From the NCBI GenBank assembly GCA_031271905.1, contig JAISUT010000058.1, positions 1-48,997 of the forward strand: a stretch of 48,997 nucleotides of DNA. Reading direction: 5' to 3'. The DNA is from Acidobacteriota bacterium. Lineage in GTDB: Bacteria; Acidobacteriota; UBA6911. Each line of letters begins with the position of its first letter. Position 1 is the first letter of the stretch. The position numbers and the translations under genes were made by a program. Under the pieces are notes generated by a model. It made no database searches. It was not told the DNA's origin and saw only the letters and a list, made by a program, of their open reading frames with translations. Shown one piece after another: positions 8,749 through 33,506 of this stretch.

Positions 8749-11700
8749 TCACCTTTCCTCCTCGCACGAGTCGTCGCCGTCGGCGCACTCCTCCCCTTCG
8801 ACCGTCACCGACCTCACCCGCGCGCTGTAGCCGGTGCCGTCGTCGATGCGGCTGTCAAGCGTCCGACGGGCGGCGGGCGCCTCCTGCCCGGCGTCCGCCT
8901 CCGGGCGCGGCTCCCGCTCCTGCCGCACATCCTCCACGGCGCGCCCCGTCTCGGCGCGGGCGGGGGCGGCGGCGGTCGCCGCCTCGACCTGCGCGTCGGC
9001 GTAGCCGTTGTCGGCGCCCACGCCCCCCTTGCCGACAAGGCCGCCCACATGGTCGCCGCCGTTGCCCACCACCGTGCCGGTCGCCGCCGAGTTGCTGACC
9101 GTGCCTCCGGTCTGGCTCCCCACGAGCCCCCCCAGGTTGTTGACGCGCCCGTCGGCTATGGCGATGACGTTCCCCGTGGCGTAGGCGCGGACGATGTCGC
9201 TCCGCACCGCCGAGCCGATCAGGCCGCCGATCATCCCCCCCGCCTCCGCGCCGAGCGAAAGGTCGGTCTCGCGGGTGCCGATGACGTTCCCCGTCGCGTA
9301 GACGTTGTCCACCTTCACCGGGGTGCCTTCGGCTAGGAGCAGGTAGCCGACCTCCCCGACAAGGCCGCCCACCTTCCAGCCGCCCAGCACGTCGCCTGTG
9401 GCGAACGAGTCGGTCACCGCGTTCGGGAACGGCTTCGGCTCCCATTGCCCCGCGATCACGCCGACAAGGCCGCCCACCTGCTCGCCGTCGAGCGCCGTCA
9501 CGTCGCCCGACGCCCACGAGTTGCTGACGTTCGCGTAGTACGCCTCCCCCAGCAGCCCCCCGACGGTCGATGACCACTCCTGCGAGACGTACCAGTCGCC
9601 GGAGCTGCCGACGGGCAGCTCCACCAGCCGCCCGTACTCGTCGTACATGGCCAGCTTCTCGCCCGTGTCCCGGTTGACGTAGTAGAGGACGACCCCCGCG
9701 CCGGTCACGTCGCCCGTCGCGTGGCTGTCGGCTATGGTGACGGTGGTCGCGTTGCCCACCAGCCCGCCGAGGCGGCTGCCCGACGAGGAGACCGCGACGT
9801 CGGAATAAGACCGCTCGATGCGCGGGCCGGTTCCCGCGACGTACCTGTCGCCGGCGTAGGTCGCGTTGCCGAGCATCGTGCCGACCAGGCCCCCGGCCGT
9901 GCCCGTCCCCTGTATCCTGCCCGTGCTGTACGCCTGACTCACCACCGTGTCGGCCGCCGAGCCGGCCAGCGCGCCGAGCCCGCCCTTGCCGGTGATGCTG
10001 ACGTTCTCCACGCCGATGTCGCGGACGAGGTTCATGCCCCCCGCGCTGGCGACCACCCGCCCGACCAGCGCCACGTTGTTCTCCGTCGGCGCGTCCAGCG
10101 TCAGGTTGGAGACCGTGTGGCCGAACCCCGCCAGCGTGCCCGACATGGCGGCGAGCACCGAGGGCGTCCCCTTGTGCGCCGCGCTCCACTCCGTCGCGTC
10201 GATGTCCTGCGCCAAGGCGAAGTAGCCGGTCGCCGTGCCGTCGGCGTCGGCATGGGTCGTCGCGAGCGCAGCCAAGTCGTCGAGGCTGTGGATCAGCACG
10301 GCGGCCTCGCCGTTGACTTCCAGCGTCGCGTCCGCGCCGGACAGGGTGACGCTCGCGAACTCCGCGTCATCGGGGACGGCCTGCGCCACGGGGACCATGC
10401 GCCACACCGTCTTCATCGTCCCTGTCGCCTCGTCCCACTCCGGCACGGCGCGCATCTCCAAGACCGCCCCGCTGTACGCCGCCCGCGTCCGCAGGTGGTA
10501 GTCGCCGCCGTAGCCCAGCGACAGCCCCGCCTTGCCGCCCGTCGCCGTCACGGGCTTGTTGAAATAGATGTCTTTTCCGGCGTGGAGCCCCAGCGCCGTG
10601 TCTGCCGACCATGCGAGGGCTTCGTCCACGACGATGTCCCCTTGGCGCGCCGAGAGCGAGAAGCCGCGCTCGGCGAGGTTGCCGTTCACGAAGCCGCCGG
10701 TCAGGTCGCCCCCCGCGCCGATGGTGATCCCGGCGTTCTGCTCCCACCGCCACGAGCCGCCCGCGCCGGTCGAGAGACTGTCCAGCGTGAAGCCGCCCGT
10801 CAGCGCCACCGAGTCGCCCGCCGTCGTCAGCCTGCCGCCGTCGCCGAGCGCCACCGAGCCGCCGAGCGCCACCGCGCCGGTCAGGTCGCGGTCGGATATG
10901 TCGTCGCCCGCCAGCTTCAGGCCGTCCAGCGTCAGCGTCAGCCCGTCCGTCGCCGCCAGCAGCGCGTCGCCGCCCCCCTTGACGGAGCCGCTGTGCTCCA
11001 CGCCGCCCTTGGCCGCCAAGGCGAGGAAGCCGCCGTCCGCTATCACGACGTCCCCCGCCGAGACGACCTTGCCGTCGCCCCGCGACACATTGAACACGAG
11101 GACGTCGCCGCCCCCCATGAAGCCCGCCACGTCGGGGAGGTCGAACGCGCTCGCCAGCAGGCCGCCCACGTCCACGCGGGAACCGGCGGCGAACAGCACC
11201 CCGCGCGCGTTCAGCACGAAGACGCGCCCTTTGGCCAAGAGCGTCCCCTCGATCACGCTCGGCAGGTCGGTCACGACCCGGTTGAGCGTGACCGACTCGC
11301 TGGACGGCTGGTTGAACACCAGCGTCTCGCCCGCCCCCAGCGAGAACCGGAGCCAGTCGAGCACCGCCCGCTCGCTCTCCTGCTCCACCACCGCCGTCTT
11401 GCCCGAAGGCGACTGGTAGACGGTCGCCTCGCCCGCCGCCACGCGGTCGAACACCAGCCGCGCGTCGCCCACGATGACGCTCCCCACGCTCCCCGCCACC
11501 GTGTAGTTCGGGTTGTTCGCCTTGAGCGCGGAGGTGTCCGTGACGCGCCACACGTTCGGCGTCGAGGCGTCCTTGCTGGCGGTCGCCGTGCCGCTCAGCG
11601 TCACCTTGTCGTCCCCGGCGACGTTGGTGAGGCGCAAGTCCTGCGCCGCCACCGTGAACTCCGACGCCGCGCCCGCCTCCGCCAGCGCGTAGAACTGGAG

Positions 11701-14700
11701 CGGGCGCGGCGTTATGGCCGCCGCCGTGGTGCGCGTGGTCGCGCCGGAGAGGGTGTAGTTCCCCGCGTCCGCGCCGGACAGCGCTATGCCGCTCACCGTC
11801 ACCGTCCGGTTCCCCGCGTTCTTGTTGTTGAACGACGCCGCCGCGTAGGAGACCGACAGGTCGTCGCCCGCCACCGCGCCGGATACCGTCCCGCTGGCCG
11901 TGGCGGCGGTCGTGCCGTCGTACACCTTGTCCTCGCCCGCCACCGTCGCCGTCACCGCCTTCGGCGTGATGCTCGCCGCCGTCGTCGTCGGCAGGACGTA
12001 GTTGGAGAGCTTCCCGCCGCTCGCCCCCGTGCCGTCCGACGCCGTGTAGGCCAGGTCTACCGTCTTGCCCTCGCCGGCGTTCCCGTCGCGGAACGCCGCT
12101 GCCGTGTAGACGACGCTCAGCGTCTCGCCGCGCACCAGCCCTTGCAGGCCGCCGCCGGACACGCCTTGCTTCAACGTCGCCGAGGTGTCGTCCGCGCCGT
12201 TGTACACCCGGTCGGCGACCACGCCGGAGATCGTCAGTTGGCGCGGCAGCACGCGGACCACCCCGCGGACGTTCGCGTAGGAGGCGGCGTCCAGCGTGGA
12301 GGCCGCGTCCCAGACCCCGGCGTCCACGGTGTTGCTCTTGGGCGATACGCTGTCGCCCCCTTGCAGGCCGCGCGCCGTGACCGAGACGCCGCTGCCGTAC
12401 TGCGGGGTGCCGGAGAGGATCACGACCGGCGTGTTGCGCAGGACGGGGCGGCCCGACTTCGACTCGCCCCACACGTCCGGACGGCCCGCGCCGAAGGCGT
12501 AGCTCGCAAAGGACGCCGCCGCGTCGGCGGACAGCATCGCCGCCCCCGCCGTGCGCCCCAGCAGCGAATCCCCGATCCAGTAGGCGTTCTCGATGTTCCC
12601 GCTGTTGCGCGCCGCGAAGCCGTACATCCGCTGGCCGAAGGCGTTCACCGGCTCGAAGTCCGCGCCGCTGTTGTTCACCACGTTCATCGTGGCGTAGGCG
12701 TTGCGGATCGTCCCCGAGTTGTCGTAGGCGAAGCCCGCGTCCCAGCTCGAATTCGCGCCCAGCGTGGCGAACCGCGTCGTGTAGGCGTCCTCGATGAGCC
12801 CCGCGTTCTCCCCGACGAAGCCGCCGAAGCGCGGCGCGTAGTTGGACACGTTGTCGGAGACCGAGTAGGTGTACGCCTCCGCGACGGTGCCGGTGTTCCT
12901 GCCGACGAAGCCGCCGACGGACAGGCGGGAGGAGGTCGCGCCGGTCAGCGACACGGTGTTGGCCGCGTAGGCGCGGCGCACCACGCCGGCGTTGTCGCCG
13001 ACGAAGCCGCCGACGAAGCCGGAGGCCGCCGAGACGGACAGGTCGTTGATGAGGGTGCCGCTCCCCATCCAGCTGTCGAGTATCGTCCCGCCCGCCTCGT
13101 TGACCCCGACGAAGCCGCCCGTCGTGCCCGCCATGTCGTGGATCGTCCCCTGCGCCGAGCTCCACGAGATCAGGCCGGAGTTCGTCCCCGCCAGCAGCCC
13201 CGCCGCAGACACCCACGTCGCGGTGTTGGCAAGGTCGGTTATGTACAGCCCGCCGCTGACGGCGGCGTTGACGACGCTCCCACGGTTGACGTCGGCAAGG
13301 ACGCCCGACGAGGCCTTCCGGCTGGAGGAGTCCGCCGCGACAGTCCCGGTGACGGAGAGGTTGCTGACCGACGCGCCCTTGGCGATGGTGCCGAACACGC
13401 TCTGCGCCGCGCTGGAGAAGTTCTCGATCTTGTGGCCGAGGCCGTTGAACTTGCCCGTGAAGCCGGAGTCGCCGCCGCCGTCGAGCGCCGTCCATCCGGC
13501 GACGGACGACATGTCGATGTCGCTTCCGAGGGCGTAGCGCCCGGAGGGGTTGGCGCGCGCCGCCGCCAGTTGGCTGGCGGTGTTGACGACCGTGTACGCC
13601 TCGCCCCCCAGCTTCAACGCGCCCGTTCCCGTGAAGTCGATGCGGGCGTTGCCGTCGCCCACGGCGGTGTAGAGGCCGTGGGGCGTCCCGTCGGCGTTCG
13701 CCCCCTTCCCGTAGTTCGCCGTCAGGCCCGCCGTCCCCGTCGCCGCCAGCACGTTGTTGACGTAGACGTTGCTTGTCGCGGTCAAGGTCAGGGTGTTCTT
13801 CGACCACGACAGCGCCCCGTTGACGTTGATGTCGCCGTCGTTCGTCCCGCCGTTGCCGCTCCCCTGCGTCGAGACTATCGTCACGCTCCCCTTCGCCAGG
13901 GCGGCGTTCAGCGTCGCCGCGCTCACGTCGCCGTCGTTCGCCGTCGAGCCGATGGTGAAGCCGTCCGGGTCGATCAGCCATTCGCCGTCCGCGCCGCGCG
14001 CCGCGTGGGTGTCGATGACGGCGCCGTCGGCCACCGCCACCCGGTCGCCGCTCGTCTCGACGAAGCCCCCGTCGCCGCCGTCCGGCGCGCTCGCGTCCAG
14101 CGTCCCGGAGACGTCCGCCTCGCCGCCGTCCGCGTAAAGCTCGATGCGCCCCTTCAGGTCGCCGACGGTGCGCGCCTGGACGGAGCCCGTCATGTTCACC
14201 TGCGCCGTCACCAGGTCGCTCGCCGCCATCGCCGTCAGGTACACCCGGCCGCCGTCGGCCACCACCGCGCCCCGGTTCTCCACCAGGGCGTCCAGCGCCC
14301 CCTCGTCCACCGCCACGCCGAGGAGCGAGCCGCCGCCGTCGAAGTCCAGGCGTATTTTGTCGCCGGACGCCATCGCGACCGTCCCCCGCGTCGCCGTGAC
14401 GACGCCGCGGTTGGACACCGAGCCGCCCAGGAGCGCGACGTAGCCGCCGTCGCGCGCCTCGACGGCGCCCTCGTTGACCACCGCGCCGCCCCTGCCGTCG
14501 CCCTTGCCTTTGAAAACGTAGCGCCCGGCGGCGAAGTCGGCGTCCGTCAAGTCCAGCGCGCTGGCGACGAAGCCGCCCGCGTTCACGGTCGCGCCTTTCG
14601 CGATCAGGACGCCGTTGGAGTTCAGCAGGAACACCTGTCCGTCGGCGCGCAACGCCCCTTCGATGACGCTCCGCTCGCTCCCGACGACGCGGTTGAGCGT

Positions 14701-14961
14701 CACCGACGACGCCCCCGGCTGGTTGAAGTTCACCGCCTCGCCGGCTTTGACGCTGAACGACTGCCAGTTGATGGACGCCCGTTCGGTCGTCTGGTTGACG
14801 TTCGTGACGTTGCCGGACTGCGCGACGGTCGCCACGCCGCTGGTCACCACCGCGCCCTGCGGGCCGGACTGCGCCAAAAGCGCCTGTCCCGGCGCAAGCA
14901 GCGCCATCAGCGCCGCCGCCGCGGCCTTTTGCCTTAGTTTCTTCGCGTCCCGTCCGTTCAT
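8749..14961 (-). CDS. Filamentous-haemagglutinin-like two-partner secretion exoprotein
   Basis: A 2070-residue TpsA-type surface or secreted adhesin. The ATG at 14961 has GAGG 8 nt upstream, and the N-terminus is a long signal peptide ending near LLAQS. Residues ~30-250 form the haemagglutination/TPS secretion domain (VTNVNQTTERASINWQSFSV; FNQPG..SVTLNRVVG; LLNSNGVLIAKGATVNAGG). GLUG-type repeats (GGFVG.N.G.v..aY) cover ~550-800. MBG/YDG-type repeats (DRVYNG..., DKVYDGTTAA) cover ~900-1095. A second TPS-like domain (LDWLRFSLGAGETLVFNQP, VLNARGVLFAAGSRVDVGG) occupies ~1165-1330. More GLUG repeats follow (~1650-1970). The C-terminus is acidic and contains two Cys. No TpsB/FhaC transporter gene is in the window. 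It is monocistronic as far as visible. A poly-C tract lies about 410 nt upstream. Confidence 0.9.
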   Translation of the reverse strand: MNGRDAKKLRQKAAAAALMALLAPGQALLAQSGPQGAVVTSGVATVAQSGNVTNVNQTTERASINWQSFSVKAGEAVNFNQPGASSVTLNRVVGSERSVIEGALRADGQVFLLNSNGVLIAKGATVNAGGFVASALDLTDADFAAGRYVFKGKGDGRGGAVVNEGAVEARDGGYVALLGGSVSNRGVVTATRGTVAMASGDKIRLDFDGGGSLLGVAVDEGALDALVENRGAVVADGGRVYLTAMAASDLVTAQVNMTGSVQARTVGDLKGRIELYADGGEADVSGTLDASAPDGGDGGFVETSGDRVAVADGAVIDTHAARGADGEWLIDPDGFTIGSTANDGDVSAATLNAALAKGSVTIVSTQGSGNGGTNDGDINVNGALSWSKNTLTLTATSNVYVNNVLAATGTAGLTANYGKGANADGTPHGLYTAVGDGNARIDFTGTGALKLGGEAYTVVNTASQLAAARANPSGRYALGSDIDMSSVAGWTALDGGGDSGFTGKFNGLGHKIENFSSAAQSVFGTIAKGASVSNLSVTGTVAADSSSRKASSGVLADVNRGSVVNAAVSGGLYITDLANTATWVSAAGLLAGTNSGLISWSSAQGTIHDMAGTTGGFVGVNEAGGTILDSWMGSGTLINDLSVSAASGFVGGFVGDNAGVVRRAYAANTVSLTGATSSRLSVGGFVGRNTGTVAEAYTYSVSDNVSNYAPRFGGFVGENAGLIEDAYTTRFATLGANSSWDAGFAYDNSGTIRNAYATMNVVNNSGADFEPVNAFGQRMYGFAARNSGNIENAYWIGDSLLGRTAGAAMLSADAAASFASYAFGAGRPDVWGESKSGRPVLRNTPVVILSGTPQYGSGVSVTARGLQGGDSVSPKSNTVDAGVWDAASTLDAASYANVRGVVRVLPRQLTISGVVADRVYNGADDTSATLKQGVSGGGLQGLVRGETLSVVYTAAAFRDGNAGEGKTVDLAYTASDGTGASGGKLSNYVLPTTTAASITPKAVTATVAGEDKVYDGTTAATASGTVSGAVAGDDLSVSYAAASFNNKNAGNRTVTVSGIALSGADAGNYTLSGATTRTTAAAITPRPLQFYALAEAGAASEFTVAAQDLRLTNVAGDDKVTLSGTATASKDASTPNVWRVTDTSALKANNPNYTVAGSVGSVIVGDARLVFDRVAAGEATVYQSPSGKTAVVEQESERAVLDWLRFSLGAGETLVFNQPSSESVTLNRVVTDLPSVIEGTLLAKGRVFVLNARGVLFAAGSRVDVGGLLASAFDLPDVAGFMGGGDVLVFNVSRGDGKVVSAGDVVIADGGFLALAAKGGVEHSGSVKGGGDALLAATDGLTLTLDGLKLAGDDISDRDLTGAVALGGSVALGDGGRLTTAGDSVALTGGFTLDSLSTGAGGSWRWEQNAGITIGAGGDLTGGFVNGNLAERGFSLSARQGDIVVDEALAWSADTALGLHAGKDIYFNKPVTATGGKAGLSLGYGGDYHLRTRAAYSGAVLEMRAVPEWDEATGTMKTVWRMVPVAQAVPDDAEFASVTLSGADATLEVNGEAAVLIHSLDDLAALATTHADADGTATGYFALAQDIDATEWSAAHKGTPSVLAAMSGTLAGFGHTVSNLTLDAPTENNVALVGRVVASAGGMNLVRDIGVENVSITGKGGLGALAGSAADTVVSQAYSTGRIQGTGTAGGLVGTMLGNATYAGDRYVAGTGPRIERSYSDVAVSSSGSRLGGLVGNATTVTIADSHATGDVTGAGVVLYYVNRDTGEKLAMYDEYGRLVELPVGSSGDWYVSQEWSSTVGGLLGEAYYANVSNSWASGDVTALDGEQVGGLVGVIAGQWEPKPFPNAVTDSFATGDVLGGWKVGGLVGEVGYLLLAEGTPVKVDNVYATGNVIGTRETDLSLGAEAGGMIGGLIGSAVRSDIVRAYATGNVIAIADGRVNNLGGLVGSQTGGTVSNSAATGTVVGNGGDHVGGLVGKGGVGADNGYADAQVEAATAAAPARAETGRAVEDVRQEREPRPEADAGQEAPAARRTLDSRIDDGTGYSARVRSVTVEGEECADGDDSCEEER

Positions 14962-16344: not shown

Positions 16345-16366
16345 ACGCAGACGGCGGCTCGCCGCT
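16324..16366. repeat. Dispersed palindromic repeat, copy B
   Basis: This is the second copy of the 43-nt element at 15844-15886. It overlaps the last bases of the DUF1573-like gene and supplies part of its downstream hairpin. Confidence 0.75.
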
Positions 16367-17084
16367 ACTTCGCGTACTGGATCATGAGGAACAGGCCGCT
16401 GCCGCCGGCGTTGATGGCGTTGGAATCGACCAGTATCAGTTCCCGCTCCGCGCCGACCTCGGCCACGCCCTTCAGTTGCAGCTCGACGTCCTGCGACTGG
16501 CCCGGCTCGATGGTGATGTCGCCGGACGCCGCGCCGTCGTAATAGACGTTCTTGCCGTCCTTCGACCGCATGCCGGTGACGACCAGCGGCAACGAGCCCT
16601 CGTTTTTCACCGTGAAGACCTGCGTCTTCCCGGTCTCAAGCTCCGCGCCCGCGATGGACACGCGCCGGGGCGCGACCGCGATCTTCGCGCCGGGGGCCTC
16701 CTTGACCTCGCCGGACATCTTGAATATCTCGATCTTCTCTTGGCCGGGGATGTCGGTCGTGAAGATGACCTTCTTGTCGAACGGCCCGGGCCGCCCCTGC
16801 GTCAGATAGGTCACCTGAAGTTCGGTCTTCTCGCCTGCGTCCAATGCGTGCTTTCCAAGCACGGCCTCCGTGCACGCTCAACTGGTCTGGACGTTGGTGA
16901 TTTCGACCGGCGCATCCCCCGTGTTCTCGATGACCACCGTAACGACGGCGTTGACCCCTTCGTCGATCACGCCGAATTCTTTGTGGTCGGGCGTGGCGGT
17001 CAGTCCCGCCGCCCAGGCGCCGCACGCCAACGACAAGGCGACGACGAGCGCCGACACCGCCCCGACGGTTCTCCCTGTTTTCAT
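16365..17084 (-). CDS. Exported DUF1573-like protein with in-frame TGA; candidate selenoprotein
   Basis: Read through the TGA at 16878-16880 this is a 239-residue protein. The start ATG (17084) has AAGGA upstream and a signal peptide (MKTGRTVGAVSALVVALSLA..AWA). Residues 30-68 (DHKEFGVIDEGVNAVVTVVI, then ENTGDAPVEITNVQTS) are a typical DUF1573 N-terminal half. The family continues as TSCgCT. Here the codon is TGA, followed in the same frame by ACTEAVLGKHALDAGEKTEL and another 150 codons of good family sequence. TGA therefore replaces the first Cys of a C-x-C pair (U69-A-C71). A hairpin with a UUGGAAA loop starts 14 nt after the TGA. The second half (~112-239) is another Ig-like beta domain. 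It lies 59 nt downstream of the tetrahaem cytochrome gene. The alternative is a nonsense mutation or a base error. TGA is a normal stop elsewhere in the window. Confidence 0.7.
16846..16880 (-). promoter_or_regulatory. Candidate bacterial SECIS element and UGA codon
   Basis: After the TGA (16878-16880), a 5-bp stem CGTGC/GCACG (16863-16859 and 16851-16847) closes a 7-nt loop, UUGGAAA. The loop begins 19 nt after the TGA. Bacterial SECIS loops typically sit roughly 16-37 nt downstream and carry early-loop guanosines, so the geometry fits. Competing pairings exist: GCACGG-AGG-CCGTGC, and an outer GCGTGC/GCACGC. The active fold is uncertain. Confidence 0.5.
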
Positions 17085-17143: not shown

Positions 17144-17605
17144 CTATTCGCCGTGCGCCGACTTTATCTTCTCGGCGTAGTCGAATCCGGGGTCCTGCCC
17201 CTTGGTGTGGCACGCGCGGCACAGCTCCTCGCCCGGCTCGCGCACCATCTTCCCGCCCATCGGGTCTCCGACATGCTTGCCGCCCGGCCCGTGGCAGACT
17301 TCGCACTGCACCCCCGCCATCTCCGGCGTCAGCTCGTAGTCGATGAAGCCGCCGTCCTTCTCGTACCCGGTCACATGGCATTTGGCGCAGTCGGCAACCC
17401 CCTCCTGGCTCGTCTTCTTCAGGCTCTCGATCGCCTTGGCGTGCCGCGTCCCCTCGTACGAAGCGCCGATGTCGGAATGGCACATCGCGCATTTCTCCTT
17501 GCCGACGTATGCAGCCCCCTCCTCGGAACGGATGGACTGGACGCCTGCGGAACCCGCCATGAGAAGGGCGATGGCCGCGACCCCGAAAATGTTCTTCCTC
17601 GTCAT
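17144..17605 (-). CDS. Exported tetrahaem c-type cytochrome
   Basis: A 153-residue periplasmic electron carrier. The ATG at 17605 has GGGGAGAG 7 nt upstream. A signal peptide (MTRKNIFGVAAIALLMAGSA) precedes a cytochrome c554/c'-like domain with four haem motifs in order: CAMCH, CAKCH, CEVCH and CRACH. Extra histidines (TRHAKA, GKHVGD, SAHGE) are possible distal ligands. The spacing CAMCHSDI...TRHAKA and CEVCHGPGGKHV is typical of the cytochrome_C554 family. It is the first gene of a two-gene unit with the DUF1573-like protein, which may be a redox partner or assembly factor. It is divergent from the flavoprotein gene at 17740. The electron donor and acceptor cannot be assigned. Confidence 0.92.
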   Translation of the reverse strand: MTRKNIFGVAAIALLMAGSAGVQSIRSEEGAAYVGKEKCAMCHSDIGASYEGTRHAKAIESLKKTSQEGVADCAKCHVTGYEKDGGFIDYELTPEMAGVQCEVCHGPGGKHVGDPMGGKMVREPGEELCRACHTKGQDPGFDYAEKIKSAHGE

Positions 17606-21727: not shown

Positions 21728-22657
21728 ATGGTTCGGAAGGTCACGATAGGATTGGCGCAGATGGCGATGGGGCGGGAGCCCGCCCGCAACCTCGACCGCG
21801 CGACGGGGATGGTGCGGGACGCCGCCGCCCAGGGCGCGGACGTCGTCTGCCTGCCGGAGCTTTTCACCTCCCTCTATTTTGCGCAGTACGCGAACCCCGC
21901 CGGGCCGGGGAACGTCCCCGAAGGCGCGCGCGGGAAAGCGGACGCGCCGCTGGAGGAGATCCCCGGCGACGCCTCGCGGCGGCTCTCGGAATGCGCGGCG
22001 GCGAACAAAGTCATCCTGGTCGCCGGCTCCGTCTACGAAAAAGCCGCCACCGGCTTTTTCAACACGGCGATGACGTTCGGCCGCGACGGGCGGATGCTGG
22101 GAAAATACCGGAAAATCCACATCCCGCACGACGAGAGCTTCTACGAGCAGCACTACTTCGCGCCGGGCGACCTCGGCTTCAAGGTCTACGCGACCGACAA
22201 GGGCAACATCGGGACGCTCATCTGCTACGACCAGTGGTTTCCGGAGGCGGCGCGGGCAAACGCGCTGATGGGCGCGGACATCGTCTTGTACCCCACGGCC
22301 ATAGGCACGGCGCAGGGGCTCGACCAGGCGGAGGGGGGCTGGCAGGAGGCGTGGGAGAACGTCATGCGGGGGCACGCCATCGCCAACGGCATGGTGGTGG
22401 CGGCATGCAACCGCGCCGGGCACGAAGGCCGGATGGATTTCTGGGGCGGGTCGCTTGTCATCGACGCCTTCGGCAAGACGCTCGCCCGCGCGGGCGGGGA
22501 CGAGCAGATCCTGCTGGCGACCGTGGACTTGGAGCATGGCCGCGAGGTGCGCGAGGGGTGGCGCTTCTTCCACAACCGCCGCCCGGACCAATACGGCGAG
22601 CTCGTGGAAAGGCGGCGGGACGGGGGACGGGACGGAAAGAAGGGATGCGATGACTGA
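21728..22657 (+). CDS. aguB: N-carbamoylputrescine amidase
   Basis: A 309-residue cytoplasmic nitrilase-superfamily enzyme that hydrolyses N-carbamoylputrescine to putrescine, CO2 and ammonia. The ATG at 21728 has AGGAG at 10 nt and begins the usual VRKVTIGLAQM core. The catalytic triad is visible: Glu in CLPELFTSLYF, Lys in KYRKIHIPHD and Cys in GTLICYDQWFPEAA. The AguB-typical segments FYEQHYFAPGD and the C-terminal WRFFHNRRPDQYG are intact, and length matches the family (about 290-310). It overlaps aguA by 8 nt, so translation is coupled. The two enzymes convert agmatine to putrescine for polyamine supply or acid/nitrogen metabolism. Confidence 0.95.
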   Translation: MVRKVTIGLAQMAMGREPARNLDRATGMVRDAAAQGADVVCLPELFTSLYFAQYANPAGPGNVPEGARGKADAPLEEIPGDASRRLSECAAANKVILVAGSVYEKAATGFFNTAMTFGRDGRMLGKYRKIHIPHDESFYEQHYFAPGDLGFKVYATDKGNIGTLICYDQWFPEAARANALMGADIVLYPTAIGTAQGLDQAEGGWQEAWENVMRGHAIANGMVVAACNRAGHEGRMDFWGGSLVIDAFGKTLARAGGDEQILLATVDLEHGREVREGWRFFHNRRPDQYGELVERRRDGGRDGKKGCDD

Positions 22658-23714
22658 AGCGACGCCGGAATCGCTGGGGTTCAGGATGCCTGCGGAATGG
22701 GGCGAACACGCCGCCACCTGGCTGTCCTGGCCCAAGAACCCGCTCACGTTCCCCGAACACGTCCTCGGCGACGTGGAGCAGGTCTATTGCCAGATGGTGC
22801 GCGCCCTGGCCGCAGGGGAGGTCGTCAAGATACTGGTCGATGACGCCGCCGCCGAGCGGCGCGCCGCCGCCTTGTTGGAGGAAGGCGGCGCGGACATGTG
22901 CCAGGTGCGGTTCTTCCGCATCCCCAGCGCCGACGTCTGGATCCGCGACTACGGGCCGACGTTCCTGCGCCACACCGCCACCGGCGAGCGGGCGGCGGTG
23001 AAGTGGCGCTTCAACGCCTGGGGCGGCAAATACGACGACATCCTCGGCGACGACGCGACGGGCGACGCCGTCGTGCGAACGTTGCCCGACAGGATATTCC
23101 GCCCCGGCATCGTGCTCGAAGGCGGCTCCATCGACGTGAACGGGCTGGGGACGGTGTTGACCACCGAGCAGTGCCTGCTCAACCCGAACCGCAACCCGCG
23201 GCTCTCCCGGGGCGCAATCGAATCCGCCGTGAACCGGCACATCGGCGCCTCGCGGATGATCTGGCTCAAGTCGGGCATAGACGGCGACGACACCGACGGC
23301 CACGTGGACGATTTCGCGCGCTTCGTCTCGCCACGCCGCGTGCTCTGCGCCTGGGCGACTTCGGACAGGGGGGGGAACGCGGCGGCGTTGCGGGAGAACT
23401 ACGACATCCTGCGCGTGGCGCGCGACCAGGACGGCGAGCCGCTGGAGGTGGTGCGGCTGCCGTTGCCCGAGCCGCTGTGGCTTGAGGAGGAGAAGCGCTG
23501 GCTGCCGGCGAGCTACGCCAACTTCTACATCGGCAACCGCGCGGTGCTGCTGCCGGTCTTCGGCGACCCGATGGACGGCGAGGCGGTGGCGATCCTGCAA
23601 TCCTGCTTCCCCGGCCGCGAGGTCGTGCCGATTGGCGCGGTCGCGCTGGTCTACGGCTACGGCGGCATCCACTGCGTCACGCAGCAGGAGCCCGTCGCGC
23701 CCCCCGCGTCATAG
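22650..23714 (+). CDS. aguA: Agmatine deiminase
   Basis: A 354-residue cytoplasmic peptidyl-arginine-deiminase-family enzyme that converts agmatine to N-carbamoylputrescine and ammonia. The start ATG (22650) lies inside the end of aguB, with AAGGG upstream. The N-terminus MPAEWGEHAATWLSWPKNP is the family signature. Guanidino-site residues appear in VWIRDYGPTFL, EGGSIDVNG and GIDGDDTDGHVDDFARF, and the catalytic Cys lies in YGGIHCVTQQEP near the C-terminus. Length is typical. Its product is the substrate of AguB. No agmatine antiporter or speA is in the window. Confidence 0.95.
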   Translation: MTEATPESLGFRMPAEWGEHAATWLSWPKNPLTFPEHVLGDVEQVYCQMVRALAAGEVVKILVDDAAAERRAAALLEEGGADMCQVRFFRIPSADVWIRDYGPTFLRHTATGERAAVKWRFNAWGGKYDDILGDDATGDAVVRTLPDRIFRPGIVLEGGSIDVNGLGTVLTTEQCLLNPNRNPRLSRGAIESAVNRHIGASRMIWLKSGIDGDDTDGHVDDFARFVSPRRVLCAWATSDRGGNAAALRENYDILRVARDQDGEPLEVVRLPLPEPLWLEEEKRWLPASYANFYIGNRAVLLPVFGDPMDGEAVAILQSCFPGREVVPIGAVALVYGYGGIHCVTQQEPVAPPAS

Positions 23715-31134: not shown

Positions 31135-33462
31135 TCACAGCTCCAGCCTGCCGAGACGCAGGGCGTTGCCGATCACGGAGATCGAGCTGCAGGTCATGGC
31201 GGCGCTGGCGATCATCGGGTCGAGCAGGATTCCGGCGAGCGGATACAACGCCCCTGCCGCCACCGCCACCCCCAGCACGTTGTAGACGAAGGCGAAGAAA
31301 AGGTTCTGCCGGATGTTGCGGATGACGCTGCGGCTGAGCTTGCGGGCGCGCACCACGCCACCCAAATCGCCTTTGAGCAGGATGACGCCGGCGCTCTGGA
31401 TGGCGATGTCGGTCCCCGTGCCCATGGCGATGCCGACATGCGCCGCCGCCAAGGCGGGCGCGTCGTTCACCCCGTCCCCCGCCATCGCCACGACCTTCCC
31501 CCCGGCTTGCAACTGCCGGACGACCTCGCTTTTCCGTTCGGGGGAGACCTCCGCCTCCACCGCGTCGATGCCGAGCCGCCACGCCACCGCAGCAGCAGCC
31601 TCGCGGCCGTCGCCGGTGAGCATGACGATCTGCACCCCCTCGCGGTGCAAGGCGTCGATCGCAGCCTTGGCGGACTCCTTGACCGGGTCGGCGACGCCGA
31701 GGATCCCCGCCTGCGCCCCGTCGATGGCGACCCGCACCACGGTCTGCCCCTCGCGGCGCAAGGCTTCGGCGGCGTCATCGAGCGCGCCGTCGCCGGCGAG
31801 GCCGACGCCGAGCCGCCCGAACAACTTTAAATTCCCTATGGCGACGGCGTGCCCGTCCACGGCGCCCGCGACCCCTTCGCCGGGCAGCGACCGCAGCCCT
31901 TGGACTTCGGCGAGCGGCATACCGCGCCCTTGCGCCGCCGCGACCACCGCAGCCGCCAGCACATGCTCGCTCCCCCGCTCGAGGCTCGCCGCCAGACGCA
32001 AAAGTTCGCCCTCGTCAACCCCCTCGACCGCCCGCACCGCCGTGAGCGCAGGCTTGCCCTCGGTCAAGGTGCCCGTCTTGTCCACGACCAAGACCCCCGC
32101 CTTGCCGAGCAGCTCCAGCGCCTCGGCGTTTTTGACCAGCACCCCCGCCCGCGCCCCGCGCCCCGCGCCGACCATGACCGACATCGGCGTCGCCAGCCCC
32201 AAGGCGCAGGGGCAGGCGATGACCAACACCGCCACGGCGCCCACCAAGGCGTGCGCCATGCGGGGCTCGGGCCCCACTGCGGCCCAGACGGCGAACGTCG
32301 CCAGCGACACCACGGCCACCGTCGGCACAAACCATGCCGCGACCTTGTCCGCCAATCGCTGGATGGGGGCGCGGCTCCGTTGCGCCTCGCCCACCAGCCG
32401 GACGATCTGCGCCAGGAGCGTGTCCCGCCCCACCTTCTCCGCGAGCATCACAAGGCCGCCGGAACCGTTGACCGTCCCGCCGGTGAGGCGGTCGCCGCGC
32501 GCCTTCCCGACCGGCATCGACTCGCCCGTCACCATCGACTCGTCCACGGCGCTCTCGCCATCGAGCACCGTCCCGTCCACCGGGACCTTCTCGCCGGGGC
32601 GCACCCGCAGGCGGTCGCCGGGAGCGACCTCGTCGAGCGGCACGTCCCGCTCGTCCCCGCCCGCACCGAGGACGCGGGCGGTCTTGGGCGCCAGCTCCAA
32701 CAGGGAGCGGATGGCGGCGCCGGTCTTGGCGCGCGCGCCGAGTTCCAATATCTGCCCGAGGAGCACCAGCGTCGTGATGACCGCCGCCGCCTCGAAATAG
32801 ACCGGCGGCGCACCCGCCCCCCCCATCCCCCGATGGGCGTGGAACGATTGAGGCAAGACGCCGGGCAACGCCGTCGCGACCACGCTGTAGGCGTATGCCG
32901 TCCCCGTGCCGACGCCGACCAGGGTGAACATGTTCAGGCTGCGGTTGCGGACGGAATTCCACGCGCGTTCGAAAAAGGGCAGCCCCCCCCACAACACCAC
33001 CGGGGTCGCCAGCGACAACTGGAGCCACGCGCCGCCGGGGACGCTCCAGCCCGTCGCCATCTCGCCCATCGCCAGAAGGAACACGGGGATGGTCAGGGCG
33101 AGGCAGACGCGGAAGCGGCGCTTCATGTCGAGCAGTTCGGGGTTCGCCGCTTCCCCGCCCCGCAAGCCGGCGACGTCCGGCTCCAGCGCCATGCCGCAGA
33201 CGGGGCACGGCCCCGGCTTTCGCTGGCGCACCTCGGGATCCATCGGGCAGACGTACTCGACATCCCCGTCGCCATCCGTGGCGGACGCGGCGCCCGCAGG
33301 CGATTCCCCCGCAGTCAGCCATCGCTCCGGGTCGGCGCGGAATTTCTCCAGGCAGCCGGGGTTGCAGAAGTAGTACGTCGCCCCGCCGTAGTCGAAGCGC
33401 CCCGCCGCCTTCTCAGGCGCGAACACCATCCCGCACACGGGATCCTTCACCCGCTCGTCCAT
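31135..33462 (-). CDS. Copper-type P1B ATPase with YHS and heavy-metal-binding N-terminus
   Basis: A 775-residue inner-membrane metal-efflux pump. The ATG at 33462 follows GAGG at 3 nt; a TTG four codons earlier is the only longer option. Domains: a YHS metal-binding module (~residues 6-50, DPVCGMVFA and [12 protein letters not shown]); a heavy-metal-binding segment (~69-96, YVCPMDPEV and [11 protein letters not shown]); eight predicted TM helices; the Cu-translocation motif CPC ([12 protein letters not shown], ~417); the phosphorylation site DKTGTLTEG (~462); and the hinge [10 protein letters not shown] (~667). The conserved His-Pro of the nucleotide domain reads SEHVLAAA here, with Val in place of Pro (~498). 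No MerR-type regulator or chaperone gene is adjacent. Confidence 0.93.
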
Positions 33463-33506
33463 AAGCCTCTTCAATCCCCTTCCCCGGCGCCTCGTTCAAA
33501 ATGCCG

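What the first reader, a model, noticed from the sequence alone, without database searches (positions are those of the whole stretch)
16365..17084. Candidate selenocysteine in a DUF1573-like exported protein
Seen: one in-frame TGA (16878-16880) interrupts an otherwise intact 239-codon gene. It sits precisely where the family has the first Cys of a C-x-C motif (here TS-TGA-A-C-T). The next Cys is kept, giving U-A-C. Good family sequence continues in the same frame for about 165 codons, and TGA acts as a normal stop for other genes in the window. A hairpin with a GG-containing 7-nt loop begins 14 nt downstream, with the loop at about +19 nt, matching bacterial SECIS spacing. Known: anaerobic deltaproteobacteria are rich in selenoproteins. 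I do not recall DUF1573 as an established selenoprotein family.
Basis: partly seen in the sequence, partly recalled or inferred. Interest (0 to 1): 0.9.

Follow-up and report, generated by a model that had tools for sequence, protein, structure and literature searches.

The report
Selenocysteine-containing DUF1573 exported protein
A bacterial gene that looks broken by a stop codon almost certainly uses that codon to insert selenocysteine into an exported protein of unknown function; it is a well-supported new branch of a selenoprotein family already known from other bacteria.

Summary
On the minus strand (17084 to 16365), a 239-codon DUF1573 gene has a single in-frame TGA at codon 69 (16878-16880), in place of the first Cys of the family's CxC motif. 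Evidence for selenocysteine is strong. The genome has selA, selB, selD (itself a Sec form) and tRNA-Sec. All orthologues in nine same-genus genomes (53-76% identity), and a Nitrospiraceae homologue, keep TGA there. Sequence after the TGA is under purifying selection. A 7-bp hairpin with a GGA loop starts 15 nt downstream, shows compensatory changes, and contains the gene's only run of codon-invariant columns (CTT-GGA-AAG). All but one of 32 Cys-containing homologues lack it.

DUF1573 is already an established selenoprotein family: OS_HP2, UxC/UGC motif (PMC2398784, PMC9312934, PMC13188914; NCBIfam NF041425). The organism is an acidobacterium, not a deltaproteobacterium. This clade scores below the NF041425 cut-off, so it is a divergent Sec branch. 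A cytochrome c554-type gene and/or an exported rhodanese gene always precedes it, never the Cys forms examined. The protein is predicted to be two exported Ig-like domains with the Sec-x-Cys pair in a loop. An extracytoplasmic Se/S redox role is plausible but untested.

The parts
16365..17084 (-). DUF1573 selenoprotein gene: 239 codons, Sec at codon 69
   Evidence: Read-through translation; PF07610 E=1.3e-23, NF041425 52.8 bits
16878..16880 (-). TGA codon read as selenocysteine (U69), first position of the U-A-C motif
   Evidence: TGA conserved in all same-genus orthologues
16847..16863 (-). Bacterial SECIS-like hairpin, 7-bp stem with GGA loop (CGTGCTT GGA AAGCACG)
   Evidence: covariation; codon invariance; absent from nearly all Cys forms
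17010..17084 (-). Probable N-terminal signal peptide (about residues 1-25)
   Evidence: Sequence shows a K/R start, hydrophobic stretch and AWA-A end; low-confidence segment 1-25 in model; inference
17144..17605 (-). Cytochrome c554-type multiheme cytochrome gene, 59 nt upstream on the same strand, probable operon partner
   Evidence: PF13435 E=4.3e-19; conserved neighbour in relatives

Best explanation
The gene encodes an exported DUF1573 selenoprotein. SelB with Sec-tRNA(UCA) decodes the in-frame UGA at codon 69, directed by a hairpin starting 15 nt downstream, so the first Cys of the family's CxC motif is selenocysteine (U-A-C). This part is well supported by comparison, though not shown by experiment. 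Inferred function: the two-Ig-domain protein works outside the cytoplasm, and its Sec-x-Cys loop is a redox or sulfur-binding site. It would cycle between selenenylsulfide and selenol/thiol, probably exchanging electrons or sulfane sulfur with the co-encoded cytochrome c554-type protein and, in most relatives, an exported rhodanese. The confidence given is for the Sec reading; for the redox/sulfur role it is about 0.5.
For: Machinery: selB, tRNA-Sec (70 bits, anticodon tca), selA and selD with its own Sec (GUAAKM) in the same 99.8% complete genome. Other TGA-bearing genes are present, e.g. five UGSC-family matches with one in-frame TGA each. Conservation: all ten matches above 50% identity in nine same-genus genomes have exactly one TGA, at this codon; a Nitrospiraceae homologue at 41% does too. 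dN is 0.17-0.36 downstream of the TGA with dS high or saturated. SECIS: same spacing and GGA/GGC loop, 98.6% of stem cells paired, covariation score reached by 0 of 500 shuffles; CTT and AAG are the only fully codon-invariant columns of 57 amino-acid-invariant ones, with GGA 9/10 between them. Hairpin score separates 16 Sec forms (16-23) from 31 of 32 Cys forms (0-13). Context: a c554-type cytochrome and/or rhodanese gene lies directly upstream in every locus of this Sec clade examined, and at none of the Cys-form loci. Fold: tandem Ig-like domains.
Against: No mass spectrometry or selenium labelling. The hairpin is not unusual by energy alone in this sequence. The redox/sulfur role rests on neighbouring genes and the CxC motif only; a metal-binding role fits almost as well. 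In the window itself no rhodanese adjoins the cytochrome; the best match in the genome is on another contig at 43%.
Confidence: 0.95

Rival explanations
1. The gene is a pseudogene or carries a sequencing error; the TGA is a real premature stop or a miscalled Cys codon.
For: TGA differs by one base from TGC/TGT, and the window genome is a draft in 67 contigs.
Against: The same TGA occurs in independent assemblies of nine other species of the genus and in a Nitrospiraceae genome, with synonymous sites near saturation and intact sequence downstream.
Confidence: 0.01
2. UGA stops translation to give a 68-residue peptide, and the downstream part is made separately from an internal GTG start (16862).
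For: An ORF of 165 aa with a GTG start exists at 16365-16862.
Against: Both halves form one DUF1573 domain (match 33-126) and one confident beta-sandwich fold; the position equals the family's Cys; the hairpin is under selection as a hairpin.
Confidence: 0.02
3. The protein is a Sec protein, but its U-x-C pair binds a metal (for example Cu or Hg) rather than doing redox or sulfur chemistry.
For: CxC motifs often bind soft metals (general knowledge); a sub-threshold match to copper chaperone PCuAC (E=0.08); an E1-E2 ATPase with a heavy-metal-binding domain elsewhere in the window (31135-33474).
Against: The PCuAC match is not significant. The constant neighbours are a multiheme cytochrome and a rhodanese, not metal transport genes.
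Confidence: 0.3

Closest known systems
OS_HP2 / DUF1573 selenoprotein family (PF07610, NCBIfam NF041425; Zhang and Gladyshev 2007, 2008)
   Same: Same domain; Sec replaces the first Cys of CxC; listed as UxC (PMC2398784) and UGC (PMC9312934, PMC13188914)
   Different: This clade scores 52.8 bits against a cut-off of 100; the motif is mostly U-A-C; it has a second Ig-like domain and a cytochrome/rhodanese neighbourhood; found here in Acidobacteriota and Nitrospirota
Other Sec DUF1573 forms in the same bacterial family (L032, L045, L050)
   Same: Sec at the same column; hairpin at about the same distance
   Different: GTC loop instead of GGA, different C-terminal part, no cytochrome or rhodanese neighbour, separate place in the tree next to Cys forms
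ASH / SPD-2 / Hydin Ig-like domains (PF22544, PF15780)
   Same: Predicted fold: top Foldseek matches are SPD-2 and axonemal central-apparatus proteins
   Different: Those are eukaryotic structural domains; sequence identity is low (8-17%) and no CxC/UxC site was looked for in them

Membership tests
Bacterial selenoprotein | Sec-decoding machinery in the genome (selA, selB, selC, selD) | tested here: met
Bacterial selenoprotein | In-frame UGA aligned with Cys in homologues and conserved in orthologues | tested here: met
Bacterial selenoprotein | SECIS hairpin directly downstream of the UGA with G in the apical loop | tested here: met
Bacterial selenoprotein | Selenium in the protein shown by labelling or mass spectrometry | not testable with these tools
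   No culture or protein data
DUF1573 (PF07610) | Match above the Pfam gathering score | tested here: met
   83.2 bits against 26.1
OS_HP2 (NF041425) | Match above the NCBIfam cut-off of 100 bits | tested here: not met
   52.8 bits; so described as a related, divergent Sec branch of DUF1573, not filed as OS_HP2 in the strict sense

The most novel reading that the evidence does not exclude
A distinct Sec branch of DUF1573 forms, with an exported rhodanese and a c554-type cytochrome, a previously undescribed extracytoplasmic selenol-based sulfur redox module, shared between Acidobacteriota and Nitrospirota.
Probability: 0.35. Interest if true: 0.55.

Novelty: new member of a known kind. Interest (0 to 1): 0.35.

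Why it matters
It places the DUF1573 selenoprotein type in uncultured Acidobacteriota, where ordinary gene callers will truncate it at residue 68. The conserved cytochrome/rhodanese context gives a testable hint to the function of a domain of unknown function. The coding-plus-hairpin constraint (invariant CTT-GGA-AAG) is a clean example of an RNA signal inside a gene.

Tried and rejected
The first genome-contig scan with the single protein found nothing; the alignment query worked. No relatives in viral contigs. No solved structure by sequence: only weak matches to antibody and ubiquitin chains. The idea that the LGKH residues exist only because of the hairpin was dropped: a Lentisphaerae Cys form has LGKH without the hairpin (L061); only the codon choice is hairpin-specific. 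Energy z-scores as sole evidence for the hairpin were rejected as too weak. A single origin of Sec across DUF1573 is not supported: the tree needs five Sec/Cys changes, of which well-supported branches force three. The original 2007 paper was not held, so its OS_HP2 sequence was not compared directly.

Full report
OBSERVATION. The gene is on the minus strand, 17084 to 16365. With TGA read as Sec it yields 239 residues with one recoded codon, U69 at 16880-16878, and ends at a normal stop. Pfam gives DUF1573 (PF07610) at E=1.3e-23 over residues 33-126, spanning the TGA. U69 stands where Cys homologues have the first Cys of CGC.

SEC MACHINERY. The window's genome (3.4 Mb, 67 contigs, 99.8% complete) has selB (364.6 bits, over the cut-off), tRNA-Sec (70.3 bits; ARAGORN anticodon tca), selA (553.7 bits) and selD (364.9 bits). 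The selD gene itself has an in-frame TGA, giving GUAAKM. Five matches to the UGSC selenoprotein family, below that family's cut-off, also carry one TGA each.

CONSERVATION. In the 60-genome relatives search, all nine other species of the genus carry an orthologue, and each of the ten matches at 53-76% identity has exactly one TGA and no other stop. All align at the same codon. Two more distant matches within the genus (L048, L050) also have it. A Nitrospiraceae homologue (41%) has it too. Downstream of the TGA, dN is 0.17-0.36 with dS from 0.9 to saturated. A pseudogene or sequencing error is excluded for practical purposes. The named relatives are Acidobacteriota MAGs.

SECIS. A hairpin CGTGCTT-GGA-AAGCACG lies at 16863-16847; the loop starts 22 nt after the TGA. 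Folding energy of the single sequence is not remarkable. Comparison is. In the clade the spacing and loop are constant and the stem changes in compensated pairs (CGTGC/GCACG, CATGC/GCATG, TATGC/GCATA, TACGC/GCGTA). On ten distinct sequences 98.6% of cells pair, three pairs show two-sided changes, and no shuffle of 500 reaches the covariation score; sliding the partner by 1-3 columns destroys it. Among 57 amino-acid-invariant columns only Leu+7 (CTT) and Lys+9 (AAG) are codon-invariant, with Gly+8 (GGA) at 9/10, although CTT is 18% of Leu codons and GGA 22% of Gly codons in these genes. Across 48 DUF1573 genes the best hairpin at the bSECIS distance scores 16-23 in 16 Sec forms and 0-13 in 31 of 32 Cys forms; one Cys form (L096) is an exception. 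Rows are related, so the rank-test p-value (7e-8) overstates independence.

EVOLUTION. On a tree of 47 domains, Sec and Cys interchange at least five times by parsimony, three forced by well-supported branches. The window's clade is all Sec. Three other Sec forms in the same bacterial family sit beside Cys forms and use a different loop (GTC).

CONTEXT AND FOLD. The gene directly upstream (17605-17144, 59 nt away) encodes a c554-type multiheme cytochrome. In relatives, the Sec gene is preceded by this cytochrome, by an exported rhodanese with a YCDCGPGE motif, or by both in the order rhodanese-cytochrome-DUF1573, also in the Nitrospiraceae genome; none of the Cys-form loci has either in the flanks held (mostly 1.5-6 kb). 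In the window no rhodanese is adjacent; the nearest match in the genome is on another contig. AlphaFold2 gives a confident model (mean pLDDT 87.5; residues 1-25 poor) of two beta-sandwich domains, with U69 and C71 in the turn between strands 60-67 and 72-76. Best PDB matches are SPD-2/ASH/Hydin Ig-like domains.

WHAT IS KNOWN. DUF1573 is a catalogued selenoprotein family: OS_HP2, pfam07610, motif UxC (PMC2398784); DUF1573, UGC, credited to Zhang and Gladyshev 2007 (PMC9312934 and PMC13188914); NCBIfam NF041425. The present clade falls below the NF041425 cut-off. No paper on Acidobacteriota DUF1573 selenoproteins or on the cytochrome/rhodanese association was found in the library, which holds only openly licensed papers.

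MECHANISM. Shown by comparison: Sec insertion at residue 69 by the standard bacterial route. Inferred: export, and a role of the Sec-x-Cys loop in redox or sulfur transfer with the co-encoded proteins (my probability about 0.5; metal binding about 0.3). The stated confidence of 0.95 is for the Sec reading.

VERDICT.

Noticed in passing
L051 about 4.2 kb downstream; L052, L056, L058, L059 within 5 kb: UGSC-family genes with an in-frame TGA (UGSC motif) lie within about 5 kb of the DUF1573 selenoprotein gene in five relatives.
   Followed up: partly
G000 contigs C19, C62, C42, C35, C25 (L106, L108, L111-L113): The window's genome has at least five UGSC-like matches with one in-frame TGA each, suggesting a rich selenoproteome.
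   Followed up: partly
window 8749-14961 (-): Large 2070-aa protein with TPS secretion domain, YDG and GLUG repeats; looks like a two-partner-secretion exoprotein.
   Followed up: no
window 22455-23714 (+): Full-length Porphyromonas-type peptidyl-arginine deiminase match (PF04371, E=1.2e-112), possibly an agmatine deiminase-like enzyme.
   Followed up: no
L096: A Cys-form DUF1573 with a strong hairpin at SECIS distance; could be chance or a former Sec gene.
   Followed up: no
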